From assembly GCA_949358305.1 (NCBI GenBank), contig OX442314.1, forward strand, positions 26,831,118 through 26,895,117: a stretch of DNA of 64,000 nt, read 5' to 3'. The first letter of the stretch is position 1; each line of letters opens with the position of its first letter. This document shows positions 6,402 through 49,335 of the stretch, piece after piece. The position numbers were made by a program, and so were the translations under genes. The notes beneath the pieces are model-generated. The model searched no databases, had not been told where the DNA came from, and was given only the letters and a program-made list of their open reading frames with translations. This DNA is from Strigamia acuminata (lineage: Eukaryota > Arthropoda > Chilopoda > Geophilomorpha > Linotaeniidae).

Positions 6402-6777
6402 TTAAGAAAAATAATTTTTAACAGTTGTGTAGCAGTTTTGAAACAACTCTGGTATGATGAGCAACGATAGACCAAACAATAAACCAAAGGCATTTGCCAA
6501 ATCACAGAAAAGAGCTTCGAGGCTGTATTTTAACATTTCAACGTATTGCTCGATGAAATTTGTAGCTGGCATTATTAAAACAAAAGGTACAGTTGTTGTT
6601 TTAGGATCCTGAAAATAAAGATTTGTTTGGTGAATAACTTTATTGCAAGTAGGCCGACAGTCACATTCTCCTTTTGTGTTGATATTCAGAGACAAATTAA
6701 TGAATTTTGCCAAGACTTCTTTAGCTTCTGATGCAGACTTGCACGTGTTTGTAAATGTGTTAGTGGTAAATGGTAAC
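6402..6777 (-). CDS. Unit 1 exon 11: domain 2 C-terminal pore exon
   Basis: This terminal coding exon enters in phase 2 through a CTAG acceptor at 6779-6778, only 54 bp after the exon 10 donor. It encodes LPFTTNTFTNTC, the family motif ECDCRPTC, and the pore helix DLANAFGLLFGLSLLIIPEL. The start resembles the start of exon 6 (LPYMDF), as expected for duplicated domains. Confidence 0.92.
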
Positions 6778-9700
6778 CTAGTCGATAATTCAAATATGTT
6801 TTCACGTGTCATACGACTGCTAATAACTTACCGGCACGAGATTGATTCGAATAACTTGTCTTGAAAGCATTTGTCGTGGCATTGTATATATTCTTCTTCC
6901 TTTTCAATACATGGACGTGATTTCAAATTCAGTGAAGTTTTCTGTAAGTGTAGAGAATTGGTTAAATTACTCTTAAGTGTTTTTTTCCTGTTATGCGATT
7001 TTACATTACAACAAGTAGTTAAACAGTAATTTATAGCTACTTTATTCAGGTTTTTTTGGAAGGTGGAGGATAATATGAGTAAAAAAATTGGCGGGGGATT
7101 ATTAGTTTATTCCTGGGTAAGGTTTAGCTTCGGAATCCAATCCAAACAGGAAACACGAGAGATTCTGGTTTTTGTTAATAATATAATCATAATATCAAAA
7201 TATTTAGATTGCCTAATCATGTGTGGTATTTTTGGAATTACCGTATTCTATAAAAAATGGAAATTATTTGTCGTATAAGTATAATATATTTTACTTCGAA
7301 AGATGATATTTGCAGTATTGACATGGTAGAGAAATCGATGTTCCGTCGACTTGTAAGAATAGATTGGATTTTAGCTCCAGGTGGACGAAAGTACAACTAC
7401 AAATTTAAAATAAAAAAATAAAAAATTGAAGCTATTCGATAATATAAAACGAGACATTCATTATTTACACAGCATGTAGTAATATGAGAGAACCAGATTA
7501 TGCTGTGGCGTAGCAAGAAGTCAACGGGCCCGAAAGCAAGTTGGGTTTGATGGGCTCTTTATCACAGATGCAGCTTACACACCAGTAAGATTTTTCGATA
7601 CTTACCTTCTTAAGCCCTAGGAATTTGTGTAAAATTTTGACCGTTTCTTTTGCGAATCTTTTGTATTAATCTAGAAAGTAAAATAAGTGTACCCCCTCCC
7701 CCCCCCCCCCCTTGAATTCCTGCTAGCATAAAATCCTGAGTTGTGACTCGTTCAAATCGGGTTGTTTCGATTTAACCAAGTTTGGCAAAAGAGCTTATAG
7801 TAATCATTGACGGTATGTCGTCGACTAGTCGTAATCGTCGACGATGTGACCCGAGCTCATTTTTTTTTGCGGTAAAAAATCGTTCTGTTATCTTACCTGC
7901 CACAATCCATCAGAACAGTTACTCTTTACATTTATAAGAGCAATAAAGAATGCAGATGCAGCTCCAGCGTACTTTAGAGGCTCTAAAACAAAATAAAAAG
8001 GATCTTCAATTGTTTATTTTATGTTATTTTTATAACTTTCTCTGTACTTGTAATATATTCCAAGCATGTTCCCGAATGCAGTTGTAAGTCATTGAAACTG
8101 TGAGTGACATTTGTTGAATTTAACCCGAGTATCTGGAATATTGTGAATTTCAGCATTAATTATAATCTACTGAACCTGAAATAGATTGCATAAACAAAAT
8201 AGCAAAAAAAAAATCGTATTCTGCCTCCAACTGCAGTGGTTTTTGAACTTGGTTGCATACTACAGTAGTAATGTAACTGAAACTGACAAAATTGAAATAT
8301 TTTTACTCAGTTTGTTCAATTTAAACACTCTTTATAGAGCACTTGATTTAAAATCCTTCAGGTTCAGTTATTCAGTGTATGGTTCCAATAAGCAATAACA
8401 ATTGGCACACAGAAAGACAAATACTCAGCGAGCTAAGAAATAAACATGAATAACACTTACCTTTGGAACATGTTTCATTACGACTTTATTCAATTGAGGC
8501 TTTTGATATCTCCATAATGTTTCGAGCGATGGTTTCTTATCACTGTTCATTAGATCAATGAAATGAATTCTGCATGGATTTTTCATAATCTTCTTTGCAT
8601 ATCGTTCTCTGTATACGGTCATTAGTTTGCCATCGTTGCAGGCAATTATATTAGGCATGTAAATTGTATCGTTTTCTTTAACTTCAACTATGACTTTGAT
8701 TGGTTCGCTGTAGTATAGCTGTATTTTCGTTGCAGTTAAATATACGGCAATTATGGTATTTGTCAATAACACAATTAAACGCACGAAACGACAAATCGAT
8801 GGCATTTTATGTGAAGTAATGTGGCTTGTTTTAGACATTACTTTCTCATGTATCTCCACTATTTTACTTTTAAGGTTTGTGTTTGATTGACGAAGAGGCT
8901 GAGAATTGTATCTTCTAATTTTCTCGTACAGTCGCTTAATCAATGCTTGTCCTATTGCTACCAAGGATAACAATGATAATCCCAATGAAAATCCCAAATT
9001 TCCGCCAAAGTCTACTAGCAATGCGATTATGTCGTAGTCAGGCACTTCAGTCATGACTATGAATGTTGTATCAGGTTGTTTCATTTCAATGACAACTGTA
9101 CTCTTGTCGGGTGATCTCGCTGAGGCTACTTCCGTTATGTATATTTGCTTCGTGCAAGGTCTCAAGCAACCACAATCCAATGTTGCTTTTGTTGATAATA
9201 CATGTTTGAATGTGTTGCCATGAGTTTTAGCAACAATTGTTTTATTTTTTACCTCGCTGCAATCCCTAATTTCATTGTTAAAATCCATATATGGTAGTCT
9301 GAAATTTAAAAACTCTTTTTATTTATATCAGCTGTGGCAGCTGTGTCAGCCTGGGGACTTTATACCATGGGTGGGATGCATACTCATGTTAAATAAGACA
9401 AAGGACTCCAGATTGATGGGTTGTTGGCCTTTATTATTGTTGTCTAGGGGTTGGAGTCTCCAGTCTACCCATGTGTTTGGCGGTGCCATACCAGCACCGA
9501 CCCGTCACACATGGGGAGGGATCCCCATGAATGACGTGGCCGGTTGGACATAACTATTTTGTCGCACTTAACCGTACAGCCCATGTAACTGCTCATGGAG
9601 GTTGTGGTAGATCAACTATCTCACCACTGAGCGTCACCGTGGTGAATAGGGAAGAGAGCAGAGTCAGCACAGAGCACGACTTCTCTTGCTGGCTTTAGGA

Positions 9701-12700
9701 CTTCGCTTTACATGTCTGTCTCTGTCGAGACTCAGCGCTCTTCTGTCCCTACACCACTCCGCTCCTTCCTTCCCCTTACTGGCGAATCGCCTAAGGGCGA
9801 ATTTCCAAAATTCGCCGTTGGAAACATATTTTGGTGTTTCCAATGGCGAAATGAATAAAATTCGCCATTGGAAACGTTTTTTGAGTGCAGGAATGTTTCA
9901 TTTCTACCATTTGCCATTGGAAACATATTTTCCTGTTTCCAAGGGCGAAAGTGGCAAATTTGTTTTTAATGTAAAATTCTCTATTGTATTTTGGGTATTT
10001 CTTCTTCCAATTCCTAAGAAGGGCTAACCGCGTACCTAACCTTACTGGTTTTTTGATGCAAAACCATTTTTTGGGACGGCTTGTCGCGGTAGATAATGTG
10101 GCAAAATTCAACATCCATATATTCGCCATTGGAAATGCAAAATCCTTTCCAATGGCAAAATTCAACATACAGTCAAAACTCTTTATGACGAATCGCAAGG
10201 AACCCGAAAAATCGATTCAGCCAACCAAACCAGCCATTTTTAGGTATTCGTTATATCGATATATCGTTATATCGCGATTCGTTATAAAGAGTATCGACTG
10301 TACCAATATTCGCCATCGGAAACGCAAAACCGTTTCCAATGGCGAATTTCAACATACACATTCGCCATTGGAAACGTTTTTGCGTTTCCAATGGCAAATT
10401 GTTTTTAATGTTTACCAATTCGACATTATAAAGGTCCAAAAGCCGTCCCAATGGCGAATTGGGAGAAATTTGTCATTGAGACTGCTTTTGGACAGAATAA
10501 CATAGAAATTCGCTATTCGTAGGAATGGACAGATTACGGCACCCCTGGGTCATATCACTCCGTGAGGAGGAGTGACCTTGGGGCCATTGGGCAGTGTATG
10601 TTAGTGACGCAAGTCACCATTGGGTGGCCAAGCGGTCACACAGCAATAGGAAGAAATGTGTTTTTATTTTTATTTTAAAGTTACATTTCAAGTTTGATAA
10701 ACCTGACTATACTGACTAACCGGCATTCAGGGTTCTCATTTCGAGTCAAACAATCTTCGTAACACTTTATACTATCTTCTTCGTTGGAATTGCACCCAGG
10801 GTGTTGTGATGGTAGGAAATTGTACTGGAAATTAAAATGTTAATTCTCAAAGACTTACAATTTTGTATTTACCACATCAAAAACACAAAGGCAATGTCTA
10901 GTGCCAGGGTAAAATAACTTCTGAATCATTCTAATCTATTCTCAATGTAGCAACAAATTTGTAGCAACTGAGAAATCTTTCTTGCAAGAAGAATATGTCA
11001 ACCACAATAATGTTTGTTTTATTAACACATCAGAGTTTTGTCTTTAGTTTGAAATGATAACGCGAGCATACAGTATGCTCTTAATTACAGCATAAGAACG
11101 GAAAAAAATAGGCCGAGGATATTCTTACGTACGTACGTAAGAATAGCGTATTGGCTATTCCTACGTACGTACGTAAGAATAACGTTTGCCCGACGTGCCG
11201 CTATTCTTACGTACATACCTACGTACGTACGGGCAGGGATGAATGAAACCCACCAGCATGTCGCGCTCAGGATTTGCTCCTCAAAACAAACAAAATGAAA
11301 CCAGCGTTTTGTTTTTTTATTTTCTTTTTTTAATAATGGAATATTTTGGTCATTTCAGACATTGAATTCAGTCATTTAGGTCATTTCAGACATTGAATTC
11401 AGTCGTTTTGGTCATTTCAGACAATTTCAGACATTGAATTCAGTCGTTTTGGGCAACACTACTAACAATAGAATCATTCACAACAAATTATTACAACAAA
11501 ACTAAACCTAAACTAACCTCATTGATTGGGTCGAAATAGCGCGACACCACACGTGTAGGTGGTATATAATCCTCCCACATACCGGTACGTAAGAATAATG
11601 ACCCCCCCCTGGCGGCCCGCTATGTACGTAAGAATAGCCATACGTTATTCTTACGTACGTACGTACAAATATACAGTTTTTCAGGGGCCGAGGATGGGCT
11701 TTCCTGCAATTTTCGGTATGTACGTAAGAATAGCGTATCGGCTATTCTTACGTACGTACGTAAGAATAGCCACGGCGAAAAAGGCAACAAAAGAAGTAAA
11801 TAAATAACTAGATTTTTCCCTGTCAGTAGACATTTGCAAACATATAACTTCGGTAGATACCTGTCGGCAATGATAATTCACTAACAACATATTGCCCATA
11901 TCTGCTGGTACTGAATATTCAAAAGTCATTAGAGGATTTATGGCCATTGCCTATCGGAGACAAATTCTATTTAGCAATAAATACTAAGCGCATTCACAAA
12001 TGCGTGCTTAACTTGCAGTTAAACACGTTTTGCTGTTTAAATGTCGTGCGCATGCACACTGCGACTGAAAACAGACTAAATTAGTCGTTATTTTTTACGT
12101 TAGATTGGAATAACAGTTTATAAACTGCTGTTTAAATATGTTGCTTAAGATTTAGTTTAATGTAAATGACTATAAAAATTTCCAGTAAACTAATCATGTC
12201 CATATTAGGTCACAACCGTAATACCCAGCTTTGGAGAGCATGCTCTATCGAGTTTGACCAGATCTGGGGATATGATTGGCTGGTTCATTTGATGCCGTGC
12301 CATAAAAGTTGAATTCCTGCTCGTTTTATCCAGCACTGCCAGAAAATTTAGAACGGGTACCCGTATGAAAAAAATACCGTAGTATGATTGCATACTATTC
12401 ATTGTCAATGGCTAGTTCATCCTAAGTTGAGTAAAATGTATGGCAAATGCTGGATAATTCAAATTTTCTGGCAATTGGGGATAAATTTGTTGGAGGGGGG
12501 GGGGGGAATAAATTTATTAGGGAAAACTAAAGTTAGGGGAGTGACATAATTTAATTGGGGGGGGGTTGAGTGGGGGAAATTAAAATCATATTAGGGGGGT
12601 AAATGAGTCTGAAATGGGGGGAAAATAATTTGTCGCCTTTCCGAACAATAGGTACCAAACCGGTAATCGATTACAATGTCTAATGCGATCTAATGCATTT

Positions 12701-15700
12701 AATGCAATTATGGAGTTCTGATCTGCTTTTAAGTGTCAGTACACAAGTGAAATGGCTCTGCCAATGGGAGAAGGCCCAACTTATAGTGAGTTACCGGTAT
12801 GTACAGTCTGTACCCTCACTCTAGGCTGGCAATTGAAATTGTGACTAATTTCGTGTTTTGCTACTACCGTCTTCCCCCGAATATGACACCATGGTGTTGT
12901 ATTCGTCCAAAATTATGCAAGTTTGACAAAGAAGTAAAATTCGTAAAAACTCTATGAATTTGTATTTATTACTCTGTTTAAAAAAACAAACAAGTAATAC
13001 AAGTTAACAAAAACAACTATAAAAAAAACACTAACTGAAAACGTACGTGAGCTATAATGACAGCAAACGTACGAAAAACGTTCAGTGCACCTTTTGGATG
13101 CATATACTGTACTGTATGTTTTTAATATTTTTAGAAAAATTTGAATATAACACCATGGTGTTATAGCTGAAGTGGTGTTATATTCGAATTTTTGGTCAAT
13201 GTTTTCAAACTTGCCATTTTGACCAAAACTCGAATACAACACCATGGTGTTATATTCGGGGGAAGACGGTAGGTGAAACACCAGACATCAACAGGTGATC
13301 ATACTTGTATAATACTTGTATAGCAGACAAAGGTATATAAGTATTATCACCTGTTGATTTCTGGTGTTTAACCTAGTGGCAAAACACGAAATTACTCACA
13401 ATTTCAATTGCCAGCCTAGAGTGAGGGTCCAGTTTTTTGAACACGACTGTACATACAATATTAAACATCTCATCTATCTTCGATGTTAAATCGTTCGTTA
13501 TGTTACTTGGGAGGAGTTTGTTTTTCCGTAATTTGCCTGGAACAATTTAAAGGAAAGTAAAGTAAACACCCTGTATTCTCACCATCAGAGCTGGTTTCTC
13601 GCAGCTTCCATTTTTCTGAAACTGGTACATCATAGAGAATCCCTCAGCCATGGACAAATCTAAAAATTTCAATGGTATAACTTGAAACTTATTTACTGTA
13701 TCCAGATCAGATAAAAATCCTTTCCTCACTTAATGTTGTAGCAGTTATTGGAGATATTTTTAATTTGATGGTAGATTGGCAGAAAATAGCACATTCTATT
13801 GTTATTAGTGAGTTTGCGGTTGCCAATTGTTCCTTATAATTATGAGTTACAAGCTCATAATTATAAAAATGGACTTATAACATAACGTAACTCCTCAACT
13901 TTTACACTGTTTTGTAAAATAAGGGAGCCAATCAGATCGCTTAACACTATTTGAAGCTCCTCCCACTATTGCAAATGGCGCTGAAGGTGCTGATGGAAAT
14001 TCAAAATGGCTGCCTGACCTGTTTCAACATTCAGCCTCAATCACAATTTTTTTCTGCCATCGAAGGATAGAAACAACTAAAATCATTCCAGGTAAGCAAA
14101 TAAATAAACTGGAAGACAATTTTATGTCTGAAAAATGTCAAATTAGTAAAACTACAGATTTTCATTTTCTTTTGCATATGGATTTGTTCTACCATTACAT
14201 GCAAAGGATTTGTACTGTTAACATGGTATTTATAAGTATAATTTATAAAATATATTTGTTGTACCGCAAGTGCCTATTTCAACAGGGAATCATAATTATA
14301 ATTATGAGCTTGTAACTCATAATTATAAGCAACAATTGGCAACCGCAAACTCCCTATTGATAATGAAGCATCGTTACAACATTTGTTATCAAGGTGTAAT
14401 TTCTGAACCAACAATTCTAGACTAAAAATGTTAATCGAAAATATTGTCTAGCATTGTTGATTAAGAATTTAAAACTGGGAAGACAATGTCGCAACGATAC
14501 TACAAAAACAACAGATGTCTCATTGGATTTGTCATGTCCAATTTCCTACCAATTTTAGTTTTATCTTGGGCGTAATGGCTATGTGCGAGCATGACGAGGA
14601 AAGGACTTTTTTCTGCTTTGTAGAGCAGTTTTTATTACTTGTTTTGAAGATTAAAGCAACGCCCATCATTGTATTTTTTTCACTGATCTCTACATTTGAA
14701 TTAGTTGTTACCATTTTGCCATTATTTTTAGTCATTTTAAAAATAGATTTCTTGTACTAAAAAAAGAAATATCTCACTTAAATACAATAAAGGAATAAAG
14801 CGAATCAAAAAAGGAAATGAGGTGCTGAACTTTACTTTTACATATTTGTTTAAAGCCCATTTACAAACGGATCGTGGTAATTAGATCGAATAAAACAAGA
14901 GTGAAATCGGATTTTGCTCTCATTAATGTCATTAAAATTGAATGGATTTTTATGCCACCTGGTAGATTAACTTAAAACAGCTAAACTGCAGGGAAGTTTC
15001 TTTTGTCCACCACTGTACATGCTTTGTCAACACATACAAGTAGTATGTACATTTTTCTCTGATGATGAGCATCTTGCCTGCGGATTGCTTCACTTTAGTG
15101 ACGCCGTTTTTAAGGTGCTTAAAAACTTCAGTTAGTTTAGGTTAGTTTAGGTGTGGTTAGTTTAGGTTAGGTCATGAAGCTGCATTTGCGATTAATCAGA
15201 GATGTAGCATGTGCGTGGACGCTGGCCCACGAGCCTACAGTAGGGGGCCTATGAGGGATGAAGGGGGTCCGTAGAGATTGAGTGGTGACCATATTTTTTT
15301 CAGCTTTTTAGGCTTTTAGAGTATCAAAATCTTAGCTATGGCTCTGCTAAGGGCCCGTCATCCAACTTGCACACAGGTCACAGACCCATTGGTGTATTAC
15401 TACGCCGCTGATCACGAGTACTGTATTTACGCTGTAACAGCAGTGTGTACCTACTTCTATCTATGCTGTAACAACAGTGTGCACCTATCTATGCTGTAAC
15501 AACAGTGTGCACCTATCTATGCTGTAACAACAGTGTGCACCTATCTATGCTGTAACAACAGTGTGCACCTATCTATGCTGTAACAACAGTGTGCACCTAT
15601 CTATGCTGTAACAACAGTGTGCACCTATCTATGCTGTAACAACAGTGAACACGTATCCATGATATGTAATTGCATCCCTAAGTACCCAATTCACTTTAAG

Positions 15701-16298
15701 CGACGATTTGACAGAACCAAATAATCGCATAAAATGAGGGATACCTTTATTTGCATTTTGAAATAACAGATTTTCTTACTAAATTGATAAACAAATAAAA
15801 CATGCTTACTTGATGTGCTTCTACAAGCTCCAAGTTGTTTAGCATACTTGAATCTAGCCACAACTGAGTGTAATTAAAAGTCTTGGTAGCACTCTTTATA
15901 ATCCCTTTCACTGCATTCCCACAATCTAAAAGATCCTCTATGCCACTTTTTATTGGTCGCCAATATGGAGCCAAAGTTGCTGTATCTAATCCTGCCAACA
16001 TTAAGCCAGCTATTTTTAGTTCTTTCGTGTCTTTATATTCAATCTCAACTTTAATTGGGTTAGTCAAGTAGTGTTGCACTCTTCGGTATGTCTGATAACA
16101 ACAAATGGTCAAGCAAAGCGTTACTGCAACCAACCATGAAATGCGAACTGCAACGGATTTCTGTTTGTCCAATAATTTATTCAATATCGGCAGGGATGTC
16201 TTCTCGATTGAACTTGCAATTTCTTTTCTGCAGAGAAGCCGAATGCGATTTTTTTTCATATTGATAATTCTTAAATTTTCGTTACGTCTCATAATCAT
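6402..16298 (-). CDS. Unit 1: two-domain DEG/ENaC-type sodium channel, 11 exons, intact
   Basis: Exons (minus): 16298-15810, 14756-14639, 13728-13583, 11950-11861, 10824-10721, 9298-8461, 8132-8048, 7982-7897, 7396-7295, 6941-6832, 6777-6402. All junctions are GT-AG and the sum is 2544 nt, giving 847 aa plus stop with no internal stop. Domain 1: TM1 49-71, Cys-rich loop, CxC-type motif CGCLRPC, TM2 405-432 with GLS filter at 422-424. A cytosolic linker of about 55 aa follows. Domain 2: TM1 487-509, MPNIIACND at 530-538 (the family FPxxTxCN site), CDCRPTC, TM2 809-836 with GLS at 825-827, then a short tail. Known members have one domain (two TMs) and assemble as trimers, so a four-TM chain is unusual. 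Function is inferred as a cation channel; ligand and ion preference are not readable. Confidence 0.9.
7692..7712. repeat. Poly-C run in unit 1 intron 8
   Basis: A C-rich homopolymer tract follows ACCCCCTCCC. The equivalent tract is present in unit 2 (about 27218-27230), so it predates the duplication. Confidence 0.8.
8461..9298 (-). CDS. Unit 1 exon 6: fusion exon, TM2 of domain 1 plus TM1 of domain 2
   Basis: One 838-nt exon (phase 2 in, phase 0 out) encodes the Cys-rich end of domain 1, its pore helix (VDFGGNLGFSLGLSLLSLV), a basic linker (RLYEKIRRYNSQPLRQSN) and then TM1 of domain 2 (FVRLIVLLTNTIIAVYL) with YSEPIKV and MPNIIACND. No stop lies between the halves. Splice sites are TTTCAG before 9298 and GTAAGT after 8461. 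Confidence 0.93.
9783..10544. repeat. Array of inverted TTCGCCATTGGAAAC motifs inside the solo LTR
   Basis: About a dozen copies of a 15-base motif alternate in orientation: TTCGCCATTGGAAAC near 9861, 10122 and 10361 and its reverse GTTTCCAATGGCGAA near 9837, 10333 and 10385, with one- or two-base variants. Adjacent opposite copies form hairpins. Long overlapping frames on both strands here are by-products of the repeat. Confidence 0.85.
10170..10300. mobile_element. 131-bp Tc1/mariner-pogo-type MITE
   Basis: Termini are CAGTCAAAACTCTTTATGAC and, inverted, CAGTCGATACTCTTTATAAC, flanked by TA at 10168-10169 and 10301-10302. It sits inside the palindrome array, which sits inside the solo LTR: three nested layers. 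Confidence 0.85.
11112..11786. mobile_element. Inserted block rich in TTCTTACGTACGTAAGAA palindromes
   Basis: This block is absent from the paralogous intron of unit 2 (near 31525). It contains several copies of CTTACGTACGTACGTAAG in both halves (11127-11215 and 11595-11770), twice next to GGCCGAGGAT. A MITE with long palindromic ends is likely; exact ends are not certain. Confidence 0.55.
11341..11455. repeat. Short tandem repeat, about 3 units of 33-45 bp
   Basis: Units read TTTCAGACATTGAATTCAGT followed by a CGTTTTGG-type spacer, with one partly duplicated copy. It lies inside the TACGTA-rich insertion. Confidence 0.8.
12486..12620 (+). other. G-run-rich stretch in unit 1 intron 3
   Basis: Six or more runs of four to twelve G occur within 135 bases on the plus strand (C-rich on the gene's sense strand). 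It is possibly G-quadruplex forming; no gene is seen. Confidence 0.6.
12804..13449. mobile_element. TA-flanked MITE (CAGTC termini) with a second MITE nested inside
   Basis: The ends CAGTCTGTACCC and GACTG are flanked by TA at 12802-12803 and 13450-13451. The arms share CCCTCACTCTAGGCTGGCAA and AATTTCGTGTTTTGC in inverted order. The left arm is split by the element at 12867-13269. Confidence 0.82.
12867..13269. mobile_element. 403-bp MITE with CCGTCTTCCCCCGAATAT termini, nested
   Basis: The termini are inverted and contain the palindrome AACACCATGGTGTT. Flanking TA dinucleotides are at 12865-12866 and 13270-13271. A 105-bp relative with the same ends lies at 36453-36557. Confidence 0.85.
13807..14355. 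mobile_element. MITE family M1 (AGTGAGTTTGCGG termini), copy 1
   Basis: About 60 bp of inverted termini include GTTGCCAATTGTT and TTATAATTATGAGTTACAAG. ATT triplets flank it (13804-13806, 14356-14358). A second copy is at 51589-52082. It lies between exons 2 and 3 of unit 1, at nearly the same point where unit 2 has a different MITE. Confidence 0.85.
15433..15655. repeat. 28-bp tandem repeat, about 8 units
   Basis: Units read CTATGCTGTAACAACAGTGT plus GCACCTAT. The paralogous intron of unit 2 has a single unit near 37268, so the array is a local expansion just downstream of exon 1. Confidence 0.92.
15810..16298 (-). CDS. Unit 1 exon 1: N-terminus and TM1 of domain 1
   Basis: ATG at 16298-16296 opens 163 codons ending phase 0 before GTAAGC. 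It contains a basic cytosolic start, SIEKTSLPILNKLL where the family usually has a His-Gly motif, TM1 (VRISWLVAVTLCLTICCYQT) and NPIKVEIEYKD. The expected FPxxTxCN block is degenerate here. Confidence 0.9.
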
Positions 16299-25866: not shown

Positions 25867-26242
25867 TTAAGAAAAATAATTTTTAACAGTTGTGTAGCAG
25901 TTTTGAAACAACTCTGGTATGATGAGCAATGATAGACCAAACAATAAACCAAAGGCATTTGCCAAATCACAGAAAAGAGCTTCAAAGCTGTATTTAAGAA
26001 TTTCAACGTATTGCTCGATTAAATTTGTAGCTGGCATTATTAAAACAATAGATACAGCTGATGCATTAGGATGCTGAAAATAAAGGTTTGTTTGGTGAAT
26101 AACTTTCTTGCAAGTAGGCCGGCAGTCACATTCTCCTTTTGTGCGGACATTCAGAGACAAATAAATGAATTTTGCCAAGACTTCTTTAGCTTCTGATGCA
26201 GACTTGCATGTGTTTGTGAATGTGTTATTGGTAAATGGTAAC
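25867..26242 (-). CDS. Unit 2 exon 11: domain 2 C-terminal pore exon
   Basis: 376 nt as in the other units. Motifs GECDCRPTC and FGLLFGLSLLIIPEL; ends with the same NCYTTVKNYFS tail as unit 1. Intron 10 is 60 bp. Confidence 0.9.
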
Positions 26243-29200
26243 CTAGTCGATAATTCAAATTAAAATAATATAATTCAATATGTCATGCGACTGCTAATAT
26301 ACCGGCACGAGATTAATTCGAATAACTTGTCTTGAAAGCATTTGTCTTGGCATTGTATATATTCTTCTTCCCTTTCAATACACGGGCGTGATTTCAAATT
26401 CAGTGAAATTTTCTGTAAGTGTAGAGAATTGGTTAAATTACTCTTAAGTGTTCTTTTCATGTTATGCGATTTTACATTACAACAAGTAGTTAAACACTAA
26501 TTTAATTTATAGCTACTGTATTCAGGTTTTTTTTGGGAGGTGGAGGATAATATGAGTAAAAAAATTGGCGGGGGAATGTATCGTCCTGGGTAAGGTTTAA
26601 CCTCGGCATCCAATCCAAACAGGAAACACAAGAGATTCTGGTTTTTCTAAATAATACAATCTTAATATCAAGATATTTAGATTGTTGCCTAATCATGAGT
26701 TGTAGTGTTGGAATTAATCTATAAAAAATGGAAATTATTTGTCATATAAGTATAATATATTTTACTTCGAAAGATGATATTTGCATTATTGACATGGTAG
26801 AGAAATCGATGTTCCGTCGACTTTTAAGAATAGATTGGATTTTAGCTCCAGGTGGACGAAGGTACAACTGCAAATTTAAATTTTTAAAAAATAAAAAAAA
26901 ACTTGAAGCAACCCGATAATACGAGACTTTCATTATTTATACAGCATGTACCGTAGTAATGTTCTATACAATATTATAGTATAGATTTGAGAGAACCACA
27001 TTATGCTGTGGCGTAGCAAGAAGTCAATGGGCCCGTAATAAAGTTGGGTTTGATGGGCCTTTTATCACAGATGTAGCTTACACACCAGAAATATTTTTCG
27101 GTACTTACTGTACAGGGTCACTTTAAAACGTTCATAGGCCCTAGGCATTTGTGTGAAGTTTTGACCTTTTCTTTTGCGAATCTTTTGCATTAATCTAGAA
27201 AGTAACATTAATGCTCCCCCCCCCCCCATTTGAATTCCTGCAACGGTAGCATAAAATCTTGAGTTGTGACTTGTTCAAATCGGGTTGTTTCGACTTAACC
27301 AAGTTTGGCAAAAGAGCTTAATCATTTACCATGTTTACATGTACTCACTTATCCAGATAAGTGAAAATGCGAATATTACTTTTGTGGAAAACTGCATGCG
27401 TTTACAAAGAATCAGTTTTCTAACAAAGGTGACGTCATAAGACGTTTTTAACTCTTTGTTAACCTTGCGCATTAATCTTCCACAATGCACTGTGCAGAAA
27501 CAACATGTCACAGCATTGTTGTGACGTTAGCTTTTCTAGATAAGTAATGAGTGGGTGTTTACATTGCAAATGGCAATGCGCAAAACACCCAAAATCTACC
27601 TCAAACAAGTGGATTTTAGTTATCCAGATAAGTTTGACTTTTCTGGAAAACTGATTTGTTTACATGATCAGTTTTCCAGAAAAGTAAATTTTGCATTTTT
27701 ACTTATCTAGATAAGTGAGTACATGTAAACATGGTAATTGACGGTGTGTTGTCGACCGTTCATATCGACGACGATTTGACCCGAGCTGATATTTTTGTTG
27801 CGATAAAGAATCGTTCTGTTATCTTACCTGGCCCAATCCATCAGAACAGTCATTATCATTAATCTTTTTTTTATTTATAAGAGCAATAAAGAATGCAGAG
27901 GTAGCTCCAGCGTACTTTAGAGGCTCTAAAACAAAATAAAATGTATCTTCAATTCTTTATTTTATATTATTTTTATAACTTTCTCTGTACCGATAGTATA
28001 GTCCAAGCATGTTCCCGAATGCAGTTGTAAGTCATTGATACTGTACGTGTCATCTGTTGAACTTAACCCGAGTATCTGGAATATTGTGAATTCCAGCATT
28101 AATTATAATCTACTGAACCTGAAATAGATAGCATAAACAAAATAGCAAAAAAAAAAATCGTATTCTGCCTCCAACTGCAGTGGTTTTGGAACTTGGATGC
28201 ATACTACAGTAGTAATGTGACTGAAACTGACAAAATTGAAATATTTTTACTCAGTTATTTGTTCACTTTAAACACTTTTATGTTTTAATGTGATTTAAAT
28301 TCCTTCAGGTTCAGTTATTCAGTTTATGGTTCCAATAAGCAATAGCAATTGGCACACGGAAACACAAATACTCAGCAAGCTATACTCAAAACCACCACAA
28401 CGTTGACCTATTTCAGCCGGTTTACGCCTAACTGTGTACTGTGTTCTACTACGTGGAAAAGTAGTTTTGTGCCTTTGACAATGTTGGTAATCGATTACAA
28501 TGTCTGGAGTTCTTTACAAATATGGTGTTATGAGCCACTTTTTTGTGCCACTACACCAGTGATACGGCTCGAACAATAGGTCAACGTTGTGGTGGGTTTG
28601 AGTATAAGAATAAACATGAATAACACTTACCTCTGGAACATATTTCATTAAGAGTTTATTCAATTGAGGCTTTTGATATTTCCATAATGTTTCGAGCGAT
28701 GGTTTCTTATCACTGTTCATTAGATCAATGAAATGAATTTTGCATGGATCTTTCATAATCTTCTTTGCATATCGTTCTTTGTATACGGTCATTAGTTTGC
28801 CATCGTTGCAGGCAATTATATTAGGCATGTAAATTGTATCGTTTTCTTTAACTTCAACTACGACTTTGATTGGTTCGCTGTAGTATAGCTGTATTTTCGT
28901 TGCAGTTAAATATACGGCAAGTATGGTATTTGTCAATAACACAATTAAACGCACGAAACGACCAATCGGTGGCATTTTATGTGAAGTATTGTGGCTTATT
29001 TTAGACATTACTTTCTCATGTATCTTCGCTATTTTACTTTTCAGATTTCTGTTTGATTGACGAAGAAGCTGAGAACTGTAGCTTCTAATTTTCTCGTGCA
29101 GTCGCTTAATCAGTGCTTGTCCTATTTCTACAAAGGATAACAATGATAATCCCAATGAAAATCCCAAATTTCCGCCAAAGTCTACTAGCAATGCGATTAT

Positions 29201-32200
29201 GTCGTAGTCAGGCGTTTCAGTCATGACTATGAATGTTGTATCAGGTTGTTTCATTTCGATGACAACTGTAGCATTATTGGGTGTTATCGCTAAGGCTACT
29301 TCCGTTATGTATATTTGCTTCGTGCATGGTCTCAAGCAACCACAATCCAATGTCGCTTTTGTTGATAATACAGTTTTGAATGTGTTGCCATGAATTTTAG
29401 CAACAATGGTTTCATTTTTTACCTCGCTGCAATCCTTAATTTTATTGTTAAAATCCATATACGGTAATCTGAAATTTAAAAACGCTTTATTTATATCAGC
29501 AGTAAGAAGAAAATGTGGGCTTTTTAGATTTTAAAGGTAGATTTCAAGTCTGATAAACCTGACTAATAGTCAATATTTTGACTAACCGGCATTCAGGTTT
29601 CTCTTTCCGAGCCAAACAGTCTTCGTAACACTTTATACTATCTTTTACGTTTGAGTTGCATCCAGGGTGATGTGATGGTAGGAAATTGTACTGGAAATTA
29701 AAATTTTAGTTACTTTTTATTCTTGTGCAATCGAAGTCCAAAAATTTTGTATAGAACACAAAGGCAATGTCTACTGCCAGGGTAAAATGACTTGTTCTAA
29801 ATCATTCTACTGTTCTCAATTTAGCAACAAATTTTTAGTGACTGAGAAACTTTGTGACGATTCTACCTTTACAAGATAATTATATCTTTGAGATAACTAA
29901 AACCTACCGAAATAAGCTATAAACTACATGTGTGCGTGCCAAGTGAAAATACAATGCGAATAACTTACAAGAATATCGATAAATAGTATTGTTTATTAAC
30001 AAAAAGTCCCGGTTCTAAATACACGTGAAATAACGGGTGGCAACGTCTGGCTGGATGTCGTGGGCGGGCCGAGGGATAGAGCTGGCTTTGCGGCATCGTC
30101 ACAAAGAATGTTTTTGTGGGTGCGAAGGGTTCTTCGCACCGCTAAGCTACAACCTAAAGTTTATAGATTACTAAAATCGATGTAACGAGAATTTACCAAT
30201 TCTCATGTGCTACGGAAAACATAATAAAGAAGGAATTACTAATTAGATATAATTCGAATGTCGGCGGGGACCATCACAATGGCGCTCAACCATTGCGGAA
30301 GGAAACTTCCATCCGCCATAAAATGCCTTACGACCGAAAGATTGCGTAATCCATGACTGGGTATTTGTTTAGTACGATGTTATCGCTTCGGTGGTACCAA
30401 CCACCAGGTAAATAATTGTACGGAATTACCAGAAGCCGATACAGTTTGTCGGGACGCCAGCGAGGAACAAGCGTTTGTTCCCAACAAGACCGAGTATTTG
30501 TTTAAGTGCGACGAATCGCTTCGGCGGTACCATCCGCCGGGCAAAACATTGTGGGGTTTACCAATTTCCAAGTAGTTGTTTAACGCAAGTATTACAATAC
30601 TGCTCACGGGCTACCAACCCGGCGCTTCGCAGGCTGTCGTTTCAAGATCCATTTACCGTACTATTTCATACGGACGGATCTTCATCAAAATGCAACAAAT
30701 TATTGAAGCAAGACAACGAATCACCCTGGAGAGTCCCCAATCGTGCTGCAAACGCAAGTCACGAAACGTTGGGGGGATTTCCCGATTTTCGATAAAAGAT
30801 ACAAGACCAGATACAAAAACCGAAAGAACCGGAGGTCCGGTGGTCAACCGGAGCTCATATAGCTCTTCAGAACAGAAGGATTAGCGGTAGCCAATCGGCT
30901 ACCAGAATCCACGGATTTCCAAGTCAATGTTGGGATTAGCGAGTCCGGACCTTGCGGAAGACTAGGTCCGAAGGAGTCCAATTGGCTCCTTACTTCCGGC
31001 AAGTATAACTTAGTAATTATTATTGGAATATTGATTCTATGGAATCAATATTCTTCATAATATTTGCTGAGTTTATTCTATTAAATAAACAGCAAAACAT
31101 ACTCTAATTTAAAGTATTTCTAACTCATATTTTGAATTACGCGCTAGTTTTATATTAGCGCCATCTAGTGTGAACTTTCGTGTTTATACGGTCACAACTT
31201 TCTTGCAAGAAGAACGGGTTATAGTCATTTTTACAAAAAAAAAACCCATGTTAGCGATTACGTTTTAGCGACAATATATGGTAACTTTCCCATAGCAATC
31301 GCTAAGTTTTAGCGACGCGACACGATTTATCGCGACAACAATGTACTGCTCAAAAAATGGTTTTGCATAAAAAAACCAGTAAGGTTAGGTTCGGGGGGGT
31401 CAAGCGGGGGCGCAGCCCCCCTCCCTTGTTAGCCCTTCTTAGGAATTAAACCTAAAATATATGTAGTCGCGGTTTCCAAAGTTGCGGTAGATTCCGCGAG
31501 CATGTGCCCTTAAATACAGTGTAAGAACGGATAAAATAAGAAAAAAGTAAATAAACAACTAGATTTTTCCCTGTCAATAGACATTTGCAAACCCATATGA
31601 GATCAAATTATTGAAACCCCCAAATTAATTGAAAAATTACCAAAATCTATTTAATTGCACACTAATTATTTACACACTATTTTTATTTATCGGACCCCCC
31701 ATTCGTAGTTAACAATCCCCCGAAAATATTTATTTCTACACTGTCTTGTAAACGTCTTGTAAACGTTTCCGGAGAAAAAAATGGAATTTGGGGGTTCGGT
31801 TCAATAATTAGGGAACAAACTCAATATGTGCGCAATTAAATATTTCAGGTGTTTTGGAAAATATAAATAGGGGGTCAATAAATACAACCCAACTTATATG
31901 TAGATACCTGTCGCGTATGATAATTCACTAACAACATATTGCCCACAGCTGCTGGTGCTGCGTATTCAAAAGTCATTAGAGGATTTATGGCCGTTAGCTA
32001 TCGGAGACAAATTCTATTTAGCAATAAATAATAGGCGCATACACAAATGCAAACTGAAGTTGCAGTTAAACACGTTTTGCTCTTTAAATGTCGTGCGCAT
32101 GCACATTGCGGCTGAAAACTGTTGGGGACATTCAGGCCTGTGGTGAGTCTGGAAAAGCAGGAATCCATTTTTCAAAGTTTGGCTAACATGCCAAACTGTT

Positions 32201-35200
32201 GGCAGCCATCTTAAATGCATGAGGTTAAAAACAGCAATGACCCATGTTAGAGAGTATACACTCTCTGCATTGAAACATAAAGAACAAATCATAAATACAA
32301 TGGATAACAAATGAGGAGACTTGTCCTATTAAAAGTCAATAACCAAATACAGATGAAATTAAACATAACAAATGATAAGCTGCCAATATAAATAATAATA
32401 ACATAAATTATACAGCAAACTATATAAATATACAAGAGTTGTATATATTTGGCAGTTGTTAAACAACCGAACATTTCACAAATCTCCAACATTCCCCCTC
32501 TGTTCGATTATTCAACAACTTCCTAAATGCAAAAGTAAATGCTAGTCTGATCAAACATCATTAAATCTTAAATAATGTTCAAAAAATAAGATCCATTGAC
32601 TTATCTCTAATGAATTCTGAATTTTTGGACTTAATCCACCGCATGTTATAAACGGGATATGCCGGTTGTATTGGATCTTTATTACAAAAGTCAAATAGGC
32701 TCGAATCAAATTCATAACCCTCTGCAGTACACCACTCCTTCACGTCATTTATATTCTGTATTCGATCATTGCTCGGTGAAGTATAGATAACACTAATCTG
32801 CTCTGTGTAATTATCTATTTGATGCATTGTGGATTGCCTCCACCACCAACTCATGTCTAATTTTTGTTTAAGCCTAACGCCTAAGGAGTCTGAACAATTC
32901 CCAGAACAAACTTCAACCATGCCATTTCCAGCCGTGAGACTCAAATGTTGTTCCATCTCAGTGACCGTCTTGTCTAATATCGGCTCACTAACTGTTAATC
33001 GACAATCATCGTCCTTTGTTGCTGATAAAACAACATCCTTGCATTTCTTATGTCTCTTTTTCTTTTTCTTTGTCTTGCTACATTCCCCCTCTGTGCTTAC
33101 AGTCCCACAATGGTTTAAATCAACCAAACTAGGTGTTACACCTGGGGGAATTTCTAATGACAAATTAATTTTCTCTTTACTGAAACTCTGTTCTCGTTCC
33201 AATTCTTTCAGTTTCTTTTTAATTTCCCCCTCTATCTCAATCATTCTCCCCTCGCTTAATGATGGGGAAATTTCATCCTCTACTGTGTTCACTAAGGAGG
33301 AAGACTTCTGCTCACAAGTGAGGCTCTCACAAAACTCTTCATCACTTCCTAAATGTTCCCCCTCGTTTCTAACACTTTCACATTTATTAATGTCGACTTC
33401 TTCACTTAACGACAATGAGGGATTTTCTAAATTCAACAAGCCTAATGTTGAGGGAACTACCTCATGAGGGGATATTGGCACCTCAACCCTTGATGGAATT
33501 TCAGCTTCCAAACTCTCAGTGCAACTCTCAATGTTGGAAATTTCCAGAGAGGGTTTTAATTCCCCCTCGTGCCAATAACTCCACTCATGTATCTGTACCG
33601 TATTCGTTTGAACAATTCTGTCCCTTGCTTGGTCCCAGACCCGGTATTTCCTATTAGATGTCGAATACCCAACTAAGGCGCCCACCCAGGAACACCTTTT
33701 CCCATCGTTAATGTGGAAAACTCTAACTCTCGACCCCGTGCATCTGAGATGCCGTACCGATACACCTCGGTCATACAATACGTTGTATGACTAAATTAGC
33801 CGTTATTTTTGACGTTAGATTGGGATAATCGGTTTAAACGGCAGTTTAAATATGTTGTTTAAGACTCAGTTTAGTGTACATGACCATAAACATGTGCAGT
33901 AATCTAATCATGTCCATGTTAGGGTTCAACCGTAATACCCAGCTTTGGAGAGCATACTCTAGCGAGTTTGACCTCGTCTGGGGATATGATTGGCTGGTTC
34001 ATTTGATGCCGTGCCAGAAAAGTTGAATTCCTGCTTGTTTTATCCAGCATTGCCAAAAAATTTGTATTATCCAGCATTTGCATACATTTTACTCAACGTA
34101 GGATGAACTAGTCTTTTGGAAATGAATAGTGTGCATCCATACTACGGTATTTTCATACTATTAAAGAAACAGTTCTTTTTTATGCAAATATTGTGTAAAT
34201 TATTGCGTTTATTTTTAATTTGATAATTGATTGGTCGGAAATGTACAAAAGCAACATTTCAATGCGAAGAGTTTATTTTTCCGTAATTTGCCTGGAACAC
34301 TTTAAAGGAAAGGAAAGTAAACACCGTGTATTCTCACCATCACAGCTGGTTTTTTGCAGGTTCCATTTTTCTGAAACTGCCACATCATAGAGAATCCCTC
34401 AGCCATGGACAAATCTAAAAATTTAAATGATATAACTTGAAACTTATTTACTGTATCCAGTTCAGAAAAAAAATCCTTTCCTCACTAAATGTTGTTGTAG
34501 TTGTTGGGAATATTTTTAATTTGATGCTAGATTGGCAGGAAATAGCACATTCTATTGTTAATGATAATTAGACCCCGGATAAATGCATAAATGCATACTT
34601 CATATGTATATTGCATATATAGTCGAAATTGGCTTAAATTGCATATTTTCCGAAAATCGGAAAATAAATGCATATATTGCCATTTTTCCGGGAAAAAACG
34701 GCGATTTATGTCTCTCTTTAACGATACGTAACATGTACGTATTAATTTTTGTCTTTTTTTTAAGACACGTATCGTGTACGTATGCTTACGTTCAGAAAAC
34801 TGAGGATTTCGCCAAAAACAGACACCAGGGGAAGTCACTAAATTAGTGTCTGAAAAAAGTTTTAAGATATAAACAAATACACAAATAAAAAAATAAAAAA
34901 AATGAATTGTAATTACTGATTATAGTTCATTTACATCAAGAACACTTTGAAATGGCATTAAGTTGTTGTTGAACACCTGATTTCACTCAAATAAATTTTT
35001 TTATTTTGCATATTTCACTTTTTTTTTTTGCATATATTGAAATTTTTGGTGCATTTTATATGCGCATATAACGAAATTTATTTTGCATACATATCCGGGG
35101 TCTAATGATAATGAAGCATCGTTACAACATTTGTTATCAAAGTGTAATTTCTGAATTAACAATGCTAGACTAACAGTGTCAATCGACGATATTGTCTAGC

Positions 35201-38200
35201 TTTGTTGGTTAAGAATTTACAAGTGGGAAGACAACGTTGCAACAATGCTACATAAACAAAAAACGTCTCCTTGTATTTGTCATGTCCAATTTCCTACCAA
35301 TTTTAGAGTTCTACCTTGGGCATAATGGCTATGTGTGACCATGACGAGGAAAGGACTTTTTTCTGCTTTGCAGAGCAGCTTTTATTACCTGTTTTGAAGA
35401 TTAAAGCAACCCCCATCATTGTATTTTTTTCACTGATCTCTATATTGGAATTAGTTGTTAAAATTTGGCCATTATTTTTAGTCATTTTAAAAATAGATTT
35501 CTTGTACTAAAAAAGAAATTTCTGACTTAAATAAAATAAAGCAATAAAGCAAATCAGAAAGGAAATGAAGTGCTGAACTGTACTTTTACACATTGGCTTA
35601 AAGCACATTTACAAACTGCAGACGCTCTAGGAATCCTTGTCCTGATTTCTTGGCCAGGGATGACAAATGCATTAATAATTCAAACAGTGGTGAAATTTTT
35701 ATTTTATTGTCTGTGTGGGTGTTTGTTTGATTTGCTTGTTTAACACCTCTGCTTTAGTTCATTGATTTATAATTTAATTTTACTTAATTTTGTGTTGCGC
35801 CTAGAAATAGCATTGTTTGATAGCATTGTCATTGTTTCCAATATTTAAAGTGGGGGTGCTTATTCATTGAGATCAAAGCTGTTGGTTTGTGTTGTAATGC
35901 TTCTTAATCATAGATGGCGCCAAATACCAGTTTTTATGTTAATTCATTACTCTCGTTTTGCACTCATTCCATGTAGAGACATCCTGCATTAAACCTGTGA
36001 ATGTTTTCACTTGTAAGACCGTATTCATTTCATTGTACACGTCAATGCTTAGGACAGTTTCCCACAAACAAAGGTGTGACTGTTCGGACGGCCGCCACGT
36101 GGTCGGGGGAGAGCCACGGGACGCTGGACGCAACACACACTATGATTATCCACCGAAATACGACCAAAGACACAGGTTTAGTTATGATTGATAGCCTTAT
36201 TGTTGTCTAAGGGTGTGATTGGTGTCTCAGGTGTATTTCCCAATGCGATGGTTGCGGATAGCCATCCCTAACCAGACCGCGTGGCACGGCGGCCATTGGC
36301 CGTAACGTTCATGGGAACGTAATACGTACGGTGAACACAGCGGACTTGGACGCTCAGGTCCCGGTGGGCGACAGAGTCGCCACGCCGACGTTTGGGTCGT
36401 CATTACAGTTAGTTTCGGGGAACAATCACAAAAGCGACCGTTTGCCTTGCTACCGTCGTCCACCGAATATAACACCATGGAGTTGTATTCGAATATAACA
36501 TCACCCTGGTGTTGTATTCGAATACAACACCATGGTGTTATATTTGGTGGAAGATGGTAGCTGGAAGAAAACTCCCTGGGCCTCTGTGGGGCTCACCTAC
36601 AGAAGGGCAGAGTCTCGATTGGTGGAACCAACGGCCCTCAGCTCCACCTGGTGCGAGGGACCGCAACAGGGCGTGCACTAGAAACACAGGAGGTGCGCGA
36701 GAGCTGTGAGAGTGCCGTGTGTTGCAGGCAAGTGATCAGCCTGCGTGGGCAGCTGGTCACAAAGGGTTATGGGTCCAGTGCGCAAAATTCTGTGAGAAAG
36801 GAAACTGTAAGTGACTTGAAAACATGTCAATAATAAGTGACGATCAGGAAAAGTGTGGTTCGAAAATCGAAATTAATGGCGGATCCAAACGAGCATGGTT
36901 TTACCCAGACCGAGAAGCTCGATACAAACTATCCGTCATAGAGATGGAAAGTGATGATTTTACTTGAAAAACATGGCATTCTGAATACGATAGACGAACA
37001 AGCAAATTGAGATCACAACCGAGACCAAAATCGTTATCACGATCAAGAACGAAACAAAAATGACGAGGCCAAACATGACAGGAAAAACCTTAAGGCCAAC
37101 GCAATCGCGGTCGGAAACGCAAATAAAAGTGACCAGAAAAATGATGGGCAGCGCAGAGACACCAAGTGGGATGAAAATCTTAGCTATGGCTCTGCTAAAG
37201 GGCCCATCATCCAACTTGCACACAGGCCCATTGGTGTATTGCTACGCCGCTCACCACGGGTACGGTATCTATGCTGTAACAACAGTGTGCACATATCCAT
37301 GACATGTAATTACATCTCTATACTCGAGTTGCACTCAAAAAGGCACCTCACAATGTGTACTCCCATTGGTCGAGCCAGTTTACTGGTGTAGTGATCCGGA
37401 AAAATAGACCCAAACACCAGAATTGCATAACAATGTACAGACATTGCAATCGATTGCCTAGGCAACGGCCTAAAATTCAAACTTCCAGACGATGTAAGTA
37501 ACATTTTTTATTAAATAAAATCAAAATAACATAAACTAAATTAGTCATAACAATCACAACAATAAATAAAAAACAAAACTACTTCTCCTAGTAGTAGTAT
37601 ACAGTCTGGAGTTAGTAGTAAACTGGCTCGACCAATGGGAGTACACATTGTGAGGTGCCTTTTTGAGTGCAACTCGAGTATAAGTACTCAATTCATTTTA
37701 AGCGACGATTTGACGGAACCAAGTGATCGCATAAAATGATGTACATCTTTATTTGCGTTTTGAAATAACAGATTTTCTTACTAAATTGATAAACAAATAA
37801 AACATTCTTACTTGATGTACTTCTACAAGCTCCAAATTGTTTAGTATACTTGAATCTAGCCACAACTGAGTGTAATTAAAAGCTTTGGTAGCACTTTTTA
37901 TAATCCCTTTTACTGCACTTCCACAATCTATAGGATTCTCTCCGCGACCTCTTGTTGATTGCCAATATGGAGCCAAAGTTGCTGTATCTAATGCTGCCAA
38001 CATATTGCCAGCTATTTTTAGTTCTTTCGTTTCTTTATATTCAATCTCAACTTTAATTGGGTTAGACAAGTAGTGTTGCACTCTTCGGTATGTCTGATAA
38101 CAACAAATGGTCAAGCAAAGCGTTACTGCAACCAACCATAAAATGCGAACTGCAACGAATTTCTGTTTGTTCAGTAACTTATCCAATATCGGCAATGATG

Positions 38201-38294: not shown

Positions 38295-38384
38295 AATCTT
38301 TTTGTGAGTATTGAGTTGCTTTTCAGTTTTTTAATTTGTTTTCTGTCATAAATATGGTAATTGAGGGTTCATCAAGTTAAATGT

Positions 38385-49255: not shown

Positions 49256-49335
49256 GACTTCCACACCCCAGTGGACATCCACACCCCAGTGGACACCCAC
49301 ACCCCAGTGGACATCCACAGCCCAGTGGACCTGTG
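49256..49335. repeat. 18-bp tandem repeat, about 4 units
   Basis: Units read CACACCCCAGTGGACATC with small changes, about 250 bp from the end of unit 3 exon 6. Confidence 0.88.

What the first reader, a model, noticed from the sequence alone, without database searches (positions are those of the whole stretch)
6402..16298. A DEG/ENaC channel gene encoding two complete channel domains in one chain
Eleven GT-AG exons of unit 1 join into 847 codons without a stop and contain TM1-loop-TM2 twice, each half with its own Cys-rich motif (CGCLRPC, CDCRPTC) and GLS filter. Described family members have a single two-TM subunit and assemble as trimers; I know of no two-domain member. A linked pair would fix neighbouring subunits and raises a stoichiometry question (2+1 or 2+2+2). 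The same layout occurs in all three tandem copies.
Basis: partly seen in the sequence, partly recalled or inferred. Interest (0 to 1): 0.93.

Follow-up and report, generated by a model that had tools for sequence, protein, structure and literature searches.

The report
Two-in-one DEG/ENaC channel genes
A centipede genome carries a large family of sodium-channel-type genes that each encode two complete channel subunits joined in one protein, a layout unlike the described three-subunit channels of this family, which makes the question of how such a pair builds a pore directly testable.

Summary
On the minus strand at 16298-6402, 11 GT-AG exons join into 844 codons plus a stop. They encode two DEG/ENaC units, and each passes the Pfam PF00858 cut-off alone. 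Exon 6 (9298-8461) holds TM2 of unit 1, a joint of about 45 residues and TM1 of unit 2, with no stop. Intron phases are 0,1,0,0,2 in both halves, so a whole gene was duplicated and fused.

Assembly statistics match the centipede Strigamia acuminata. The TM2-joint-TM1 exon is open in at least 203 genomic places. In five clusters read, 14 of 17 genes show start exon, joint exon, stop exon; one has a stop in the joint exon and two were only partly fetched. No three-unit gene was seen there.

Unit 2 of these five clusters forms one clade (99/99) and has Asn at the second Gly of the TM2 'DxGG' motif (17/17), where unit 1 has Gly (16/16). So the fusion is probably old and the halves differ in role. 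Copy 1 is intact; copy 2 is open only with an acceptor 5 nt upstream; copy 3 looks broken at exon 3.

No transcript or assembly data were available. Stoichiometry is unsolved.

The parts
15810..16298 (-). copy 1 exon 1: start codon, cytoplasmic N-terminus, TM1 of unit 1 (about 16083-16154), first part of extracellular domain; donor phase 0
14639..14756 (-). copy 1 exon 2; ends in phase 1
13583..13719 (-). copy 1 exon 3; ends in phase 0
11861..11950 (-). copy 1 exon 4; ends in phase 0
10721..10824 (-). copy 1 exon 5 (Cys-rich); ends in phase 2
8461..9298 (-). copy 1 exon 6, the joint exon: palm end of unit 1 with CGCLRPC (9154-9174), TM2 of unit 1 (about 8938-9030) with GLS triplet (8974-8982), cytoplasmic joint (about 8788-8937), TM1 of unit 2 (about 8710-8787), start of second extracellular domain; no stop; ends in phase 0
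8048..8132 (-). copy 1 exon 7 (counterpart of exon 2); ends in phase 1
7897..7982 (-). copy 1 exon 8 (counterpart of exon 3); ends in phase 0
7295..7396 (-). copy 1 exon 9 (counterpart of exon 4); ends in phase 0
6832..6941 (-). copy 1 exon 10 (counterpart of exon 5); ends in phase 2
6402..6777 (-). copy 1 exon 11: palm end of unit 2 with CDCRPTC (6645-6665), TM2 of unit 2 (about 6438-6521) with Asn in place of the second Gly (6492-6494) and GLS triplet (6465-6473), stop
25867..38297 (-). copy 2: all 11 exons (38297-37812 with the first Met at 38294, 35506-35389, 34480-34338, 31997-31908, 29690-29587, 29468-28631, 28075-27991, 27925-27828, 26867-26766, 26412-26303, 26242-25867); open if exon 3 uses an acceptor 5 nt upstream of that in copy 1
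45404..62091 (-). copy 3: the same 11 exons (exon 1 62091-61621 with the first Met at 62079, joint exon 50423-49586, last exon 45779-45404); exon 3 region at about 52337-52481 gave no open frame with the acceptors tried

Best explanation
The gene encodes a covalently linked pair of DEG/ENaC subunits. Unit 1 ends at TM2 with almost no tail and runs straight into the cytoplasmic N-terminus and TM1 of unit 2. SHOWN: the open, spliced two-unit frame; the repeated intron phases; recurrence of the joint exon in many distant paralogues; one clade of unit 2 in the five clusters read; an Asn-for-Gly difference between the units at an upper-TM2 motif. INFERRED: one ancestral single-unit gene of six exons duplicated in tandem, the two fused once early in the lineage, and the fused gene then spread into large tandem arrays. 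The product is a non-voltage-gated cation channel subunit of sensory type, like the single-unit centipede channels BRTNaC1 and PDPNaC1. The array size and the relaxed recent dN/dS suggest a receptor repertoire. MOST LIKELY ASSEMBLY (inference, about 0.4): the chain fills two neighbouring positions of an ordinary three-fold pore, and the third position is filled by a single-unit subunit (such genes seem to exist in this genome) or by unit 1 of another chain. The confidence below is for a functional, channel-type fused pair; the assembly sub-claim is weaker.
For: Full 11-exon model, phases 0,1,0,0,2 | 0,1,0,0,2. Each half passes PF00858 alone, for copy 1 and for a 27%-identical paralogue on another chromosome. 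That paralogue can be modelled with the same intron phases at the nine introns it shares; its splice sites were chosen with copy 1 as guide. At least 203 open joint exons on eight contigs. The start-joint-stop order in 14 of 17 genes read in full or part; of the other three, one has an in-frame TGA in the joint exon and two run out of the fetched stretches. Unit 2 one clade, 99/99; unit 1 as one clade not rejected, p-AU 0.364. dN/dS 0.19-0.35 between subfamilies on both sides of the joint. Unit 2 matches the solved centipede channel BRTNaC1 over most of its length, E 3.6e-13. Dimeric ASIC1a constructs carry ASIC currents (PMC4529235). Loci with a start exon, a stop exon and no joint exon between them (L003, L007, L008).
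Against: No transcript or protein evidence. dN/dS among close copies of the local family is high (0.44-1.38 where computable), which fits rapid diversification but also relaxed constraint. Copy 3 looks broken at exon 3, and 3 of 137 and 5 of 143 linker-spanning matches carry a stop. In some paralogues unit 1 departs at the filter: L016 and L019 read DLS and L021 lacks an 8-residue stretch that holds it. Two short extra stop-exon-like pieces lie in the C6 cluster and are unexplained. The structure model of exon 6 was useless (pLDDT 32), so nothing structural supports the assembly. The His-Gly motif before TM1 of other family members (recalled) is not seen in either half of copy 1.
Confidence: 0.8

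Rival explanations
1. Three chains assemble as a double-barrelled complex: the three unit 1s form one trimeric pore and the three unit 2s a second pore beside it.
For: Unit 1 and unit 2 carry separate conserved signatures, which would suit two homotypic rings; no added third unit is needed; the joint of about 32-48 residues may be long enough.
Against: I know of no member that forms paired pores (recalled); the joint is about as long as an ordinary N-terminus, so three crossings between two pores look tight. Not tested.
Confidence: 0.2
2. Only unit 1 lines the pore (three chains, unit 1 trimer); unit 2 is a peripheral regulatory unit.
For: Unit 2 departs from the family motif at the second Gly of DxGG in 17 of 17 and in copy 1 scores lower in Pfam (45.6 against 74.2 bits).
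Against: Unit 2 keeps a GLS or GVS filter triplet in all 17 rows, and copy 1 unit 2 aligns over 12-453 of the 455 profile positions, which a non-pore domain need not do; where a filter is altered (L016, L019, L021) it is in unit 1.
Confidence: 0.15
3. The locus makes two separate single-unit messages by an internal promoter or polyadenylation site, and the joint exon only looks fused.
For: 14 of 25 joints hold at least one Met codon (copies 1-3 have two).
Against: No stop after TM2 in the joint exon; 11 of 25 joints have no Met; dN/dS between subfamilies is below 1 in the joint too (0.26-0.89); an unbroken reading frame across the joint is kept in at least 203 places.
Confidence: 0.06
4. Decaying relics: a fused gene that multiplied but no longer encodes working channels.
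For: Copy 3 frame break; a stop in 3 of 137 and 5 of 143 joint-spanning matches, two of them shared; altered filters in L016, L019 and L021.
Against: Copy 1 open in all 11 exons; 134 of 137 and 138 of 143 linker-spanning matches open; dN/dS 0.19-0.35 between subfamilies.
Confidence: 0.05

Closest known systems
[quoted passage not shown]
   Same: Best matches of known structure: PDPNaC1 to the joint exon, BRTNaC1 to unit 2; animals of the same class; sensory use (PMC12714832, abstract start and passages).
   Different: One unit of 421-431 residues per chain; PDPNaC1 is a homotrimer (abstract). Here two units per chain.
ASIC, ENaC, FaNaC, pickpocket and degenerin subunits
   Same: Two TM helices, Cys-rich extracellular domain, GxS triplet per unit (PF00858).
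   Different: ASIC1 and ENaC chains carry one unit and three chains form a channel (PMC10148893, passages).
Engineered ASIC1a concatemers (PMC4529235, passages)
   Same: Two to four units joined tail to head in one chain; currents from the dimer construct too.
   Different: Made in the laboratory, with identical units and an 8-residue added linker; smaller products were also seen; that paper argues for a tetramer. Here natural, two diverged units, almost no tail on unit 1.
P0001, an unnamed 1016-aa protein from an assembled public contig (9,936 bases)
   Same: More than one DEG/ENaC unit in one open frame: three PF00858 stretches at the lax limit used, E up to 1 each.
   Different: Three units by eye, the middle one short; source organism unknown; 26% identity over 18% of the query; no second copy found.

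Membership tests
DEG/ENaC (PF00858) | Profile match over the curated cut-off | tested here: met
   Copy 1: unit 1 74.2 bits, unit 2 45.6 bits, cut-off 23.6; paralogue on C11 75.1 and 59.9
DEG/ENaC (PF00858) | Two TM segments flanking one large extracellular domain, per unit | tested here: met
   Hydropathy finds four TM segments in copy 1 at about 49-67, 415-433, 484-505, 810-828; at the same threshold it found three in copy 2 and two in the C11 paralogue
DEG/ENaC (PF00858) | GxS selectivity-filter triplet in TM2 | tested here: met
   GLS in both units of the three window copies; GLS, GFS or GVS in the other rows. Exceptions among further paralogues: unit 1 of L016 and L019 (DLS) and L021 (stretch missing)
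DEG/ENaC (PF00858) | D-x-G-G motif at the start of TM2 | tested here: inconclusive
   Met in unit 1 (16 of 16), not met in unit 2 (0 of 17; second Gly is Asn)
DEG/ENaC (PF00858) | His-Gly motif before TM1 (recalled) | tested here: not met
   By inspection of the copy 1 translation, no HG before either TM1; the motif is recalled, and that it is not universal is recalled too
DEG/ENaC (PF00858) | One unit per polypeptide | tested here: not met
   Two units in one spliced frame. This makes it a variant, since the units themselves are members
DEG/ENaC (PF00858) | Trimeric channel | not testable with these tools
   Needs biochemistry or cryo-EM
BRTNaC1/PDPNaC1-type centipede channels | Sequence similarity over most of the unit | tested here: met
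   Unit 2 residues 47-382 of 392 to BRTNaC1 72-411 of 431, E 3.6e-13; unit 1 was compared only through its last part in exon 6
BRTNaC1/PDPNaC1-type centipede channels | Proton or heat gating | not testable with these tools
   No functional data

The most novel reading that the evidence does not exclude
Centipedes evolved a receptor superfamily of more than 200 genes whose members are natural, obligate DEG/ENaC heterodimers in one chain. Unit 2 is a separate class with an Asn at the upper pore, and each channel is completed by a shared single-unit co-subunit (2+1), in the manner of tuning receptor plus co-receptor. The alternative is a paired-pore complex. Either would break the three-chains-one-unit-each rule of the family.
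Probability: 0.35. Interest if true: 0.92.

Novelty: new variant of a known kind. Interest (0 to 1): 0.82.

Why it matters
The solved DEG/ENaC channels are trimers of single-unit chains, and how heteromers fix their order and stoichiometry is a long-standing problem (even trimer against tetramer was argued for ASIC1a, PMC4529235). A natural two-unit chain, whose joint exon is kept open in at least 203 genomic places over deep divergence, is an experiment done by evolution: the two units cannot segregate and carry different conserved pore-region residues, yet a three-fold pore cannot be filled by whole pairs alone. It gives a direct test of assembly rules.

Tried and rejected
Extra exon at 10922-10872 (conserved YPG-like block): rejected, since copy 2 lacks a donor and exon 4 joins exon 5 in frame without it. 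Chance or annotation-style merging of two neighbouring genes: rejected because the joint lies inside one open exon in 16 of the 17 genes or part-genes read, or shown by the genome search, in the five clusters, the 17th having a TGA there. Three-unit genes in this genome: looked for only in the stretches of five clusters, none seen. Structure of the joint exon: job done but pLDDT 32, pTM 0.20, so no fold search was run on it. Homologues in 5.8 billion proteins: none with copy 1 alone (7991 candidates), one with a two-row alignment (P0001, 6250 candidates), none but itself from P0001 (4256 candidates); a piece of P0001 finds nothing in this genome. That collection seems poor in annotated animal genomes, so this says little about rarity. 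Mitochondrial COX1 search to name the organism: not completed; the organism was named by assembly statistics instead. First tree with fewer families gave the unit-2 clade 91/87; the wider tree replaced it. In the wider tree I left out six near-identical C11 rows and put the unit-1 half of the stop-broken C6 exon with unit 1 by its position; the tool warned of long branches that meet. One search used the wrong strand for most loci and was discarded. The strict hydropathy scan missed TM segments in the C11 paralogue and one in copy 2; in three C11 rows it placed TM1 too late, so their joints were read by eye. Two short stop-exon-like pieces in C6 (51 and 122 aa frames) were not followed up.
Full report
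What is there. On the minus strand, copy 1 runs from 16298 to 6402. I re-derived its exons from conserved open blocks shared by the three tandem copies and from frame-keeping splice sites. The result is 11 GT-AG exons, 2535 nt, 844 residues and a stop. Exon 6 (9298-8461) is the core of the finding: one open exon with the palm end and TM2 of the first unit, a joint of about 45 residues, and TM1 and the first extracellular part of the second unit.

Two complete units. Cut at the joint, each half passes the Pfam ASC profile on its own (74.2 and 45.6 bits, cut-off 23.6); unit 1 matches in two pieces, unit 2 in one from profile position 12 to 453 of 455. Unit 2 matches the solved centipede channel BRTNaC1 along most of its length, E 3.6e-13. 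Hydropathy of copy 1 shows four TM segments; the same threshold found three in copy 2 and two in the C11 paralogue. Both units have the Cys motif before TM2 and the GLS triplet.

Origin by whole-gene duplication. The introns in half 1 end in phases 0,1,0,0,2 and those in half 2 in 0,1,0,0,2, with exon 1 matching the tail of exon 6, and the head of exon 6 matching exon 11. A six-exon gene was therefore duplicated and fused, the last exon of the first copy joined to the first exon of the second.

The other copies. All 11 exons are found in copies 2 and 3. Copy 2 is open only if exon 3 starts 5 nt upstream of the copy 1 site. In copy 3 the AG acceptors of a 190-nt stretch were tried for exon 3: the best two keep the downstream frame but bring two stops, and the others shown lose the frame; other exon-2 donors were not tried. 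Joint exons of seven close relatives lie between 26.82 and 27.00 Mb of the contig, the three in the window among them and one of the seven with a TAA.

The organism. Contig 1 has 66,985,994 bases and contig 11 has 9,836,499. The genome note of the centipede Strigamia acuminata (PMC10556566, parts 1 and 2 of 3 read) gives a longest scaffold of 66,985,994 bp, an N90 of 9,836,499 bp and a total of 237,534,282 bp in 158 scaffolds, against 237,517,015 bases in 157 contigs here. I take the source to be assembly qcStrAcum1.1 or a slightly edited version of it.

How widespread. The exon 6 protein matches 142 places in this genome. Of these 137 span the joint, and 134 of the 137 have no stop. The joint exon of a distant paralogue on contig 11 matches 144 places; 143 span the joint and 138 are open. 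The union of open, spanning places is 203, on eight contigs, 108 of them on contig 1. Both searches scored only their best candidates (139 of 1521 and 144 of 1583), so this is a lower bound for open joint exons. It is not a count of whole genes: start and stop exons were checked only in the clusters below. A few rows have equal scores and may be recent or assembly duplicates.

Two units, not three. In contig 11 all seven genes read show the order start exon (TM1), joint exon, stop exon (TM2). In contig 6 three genes do, and a fourth has a TGA in the joint exon. In contig 8 one gene does, and a second shows only its stop exon because the stretch ended there. On contig 1 at 45.54 Mb a joint and a stop exon were in the stretch fetched. 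With the three window copies this is 14 of 17. No gene with two joint exons was seen. Two short stop-exon-like pieces in contig 6 are unexplained. One contig 11 gene was modelled in full: 801 residues, ten exons, 27% identical to copy 1, with the same phases at its nine introns (one intron of half 1 is missing); its splice sites were chosen with copy 1 as guide. Loci with a start exon and a stop exon but no joint exon between them also occur (L003, L007, L008), so single-unit genes seem to exist; the loci are only about 3.3 kb long.

Selection and history. Nei-Gojobori dN/dS between subfamilies (L009 or L014 with L016, L009 with L020, L016 with L020) is 0.19-0.35 on both sides of the joint and 0.26-0.89 within it; dS there is 0.67-2.33, so often near saturation. 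Among close copies it is higher, 0.35-1.38 where it could be computed (14 pairs of 13 sequences). In a tree of the TM2 regions, 14 unit-2 rows from five clusters form one clade (99/99). The 13 unit-1 rows do not form one in the best tree (12% of bootstrap trees), but a single clade is not rejected (p-AU 0.364); the tool warned of long branches. This fits one fusion followed by spread, and does not prove it.

The two units differ. At the start of TM2, unit 1 has D-x-G-G in 16 of 16, the stop-broken C6 exon counted. Unit 2 has Asn at the second Gly in 17 of 17 (the script had listed that C6 half among unit 2 and I moved it). The eight further TM2 exons have Gly-Gly; three of them are in the apparent single-unit loci, the other five were not placed. 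In chicken ASIC1 the Asp of this motif forms the upper gate (PMC10148893, figure-legend passage); that the second Gly faces the pore is recalled. A conserved difference at such a place, kept over five divergent clusters, argues that the two units have separate roles. On the other side, unit 1 of L016 and L019 reads DLS at the filter and L021 lacks the stretch, so not every paralogue need conduct.

One message or two. No RNA data were at hand. Against two messages: no stop after TM2 in the joint exon, no Met in 11 of 25 joints examined (three of these read by eye), and more than 200 open joints. For it: copies 1-3 do have two Met codons in the joint.

How it may work. The units belong to non-voltage-gated cation channels. 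The nearest solved relatives are centipede sensory channels: PDPNaC1 is a proton-responsive homotrimer of antennal sensory neurons, and BRTNaC1 a thermal receptor (PMC12714832, abstract start and passages). Dimeric ASIC1a constructs with an 8-residue linker gave typical currents, although smaller products were also seen and the authors argue for a tetramer (PMC4529235, passages), so a linked pair is workable but its stoichiometry is open even there. A three-fold pore cannot be filled by whole pairs. Options are pair plus one single unit, pair plus one unit of a second pair, three pairs making two pores, or unit 2 outside the pore. I favour the first two (about 0.4 together), because single-unit genes seem to coexist and unit 2 keeps a filter; none of this is shown.

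Novelty. The S. maritima genome paper (PMC4244043, searched for words) reports expansions of gustatory and ionotropic receptors and has no occurrence of the DEG/ENaC names I searched. Most subscription papers and public gene predictions were out of reach, so uncharacterised database entries may exist. Among 5.8 billion proteins only one multi-unit relative came up, a three-unit frame of unknown source. I rate this a new variant of a known kind.

Noticed in passing
P0001 (1016 aa): An unnamed public protein with three PF00858 stretches (each at E up to 1) in one open frame, by eye TM1-TM2 three times with a short middle unit: a possible natural three-unit DEG/ENaC chain in another organism.
   Followed up: partly
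window 6492-6494 and the TM2 of unit 2 in C11, C6, C8 and C1 clusters: Unit 2 has Asn at the second Gly of the DxGG motif in 17 of 17 genes from five clusters, unit 1 Gly in 16 of 16.
   Followed up: partly
L016, L019, L021: Unit 1 of these paralogues departs at the filter: DLS in L016 and L019, an 8-residue stretch missing in L021.
   Followed up: no
window 52337-52481: Exon 3 of copy 3 gives no open frame with the acceptors tried: possible pseudogene.
   Followed up: partly
window 18171-18212 (-): A short isolated match to the start of exon 11 (LPITNNTFANMCKS), probably a relic of another copy between copies 1 and 2.
   Followed up: no
window 20479-24515 (+) and 2212-2880 (-): Open frames that by eye look like a DIRS-type retroelement (reverse transcriptase region followed by a recombinase-like frame) between copies 1 and 2, and a similar recombinase-like fragment near the left end; recalled resemblance, not searched.
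   Followed up: no
window 59337-61181 (+): A 614-aa frame that by eye resembles a Copia-type gag inside the first intron of copy 3; not searched.
   Followed up: no
window 15457-15661; 40277-41203; 6068-6278: Tandem arrays (28-, 28- and 52-base units); the first lies in intron 1 of copy 1.
   Followed up: no
C6:4136551-4137399 (L036): A joint exon split by a single in-frame TGA between TM2 and TM1, with a start exon upstream and a stop exon downstream.
   Followed up: no
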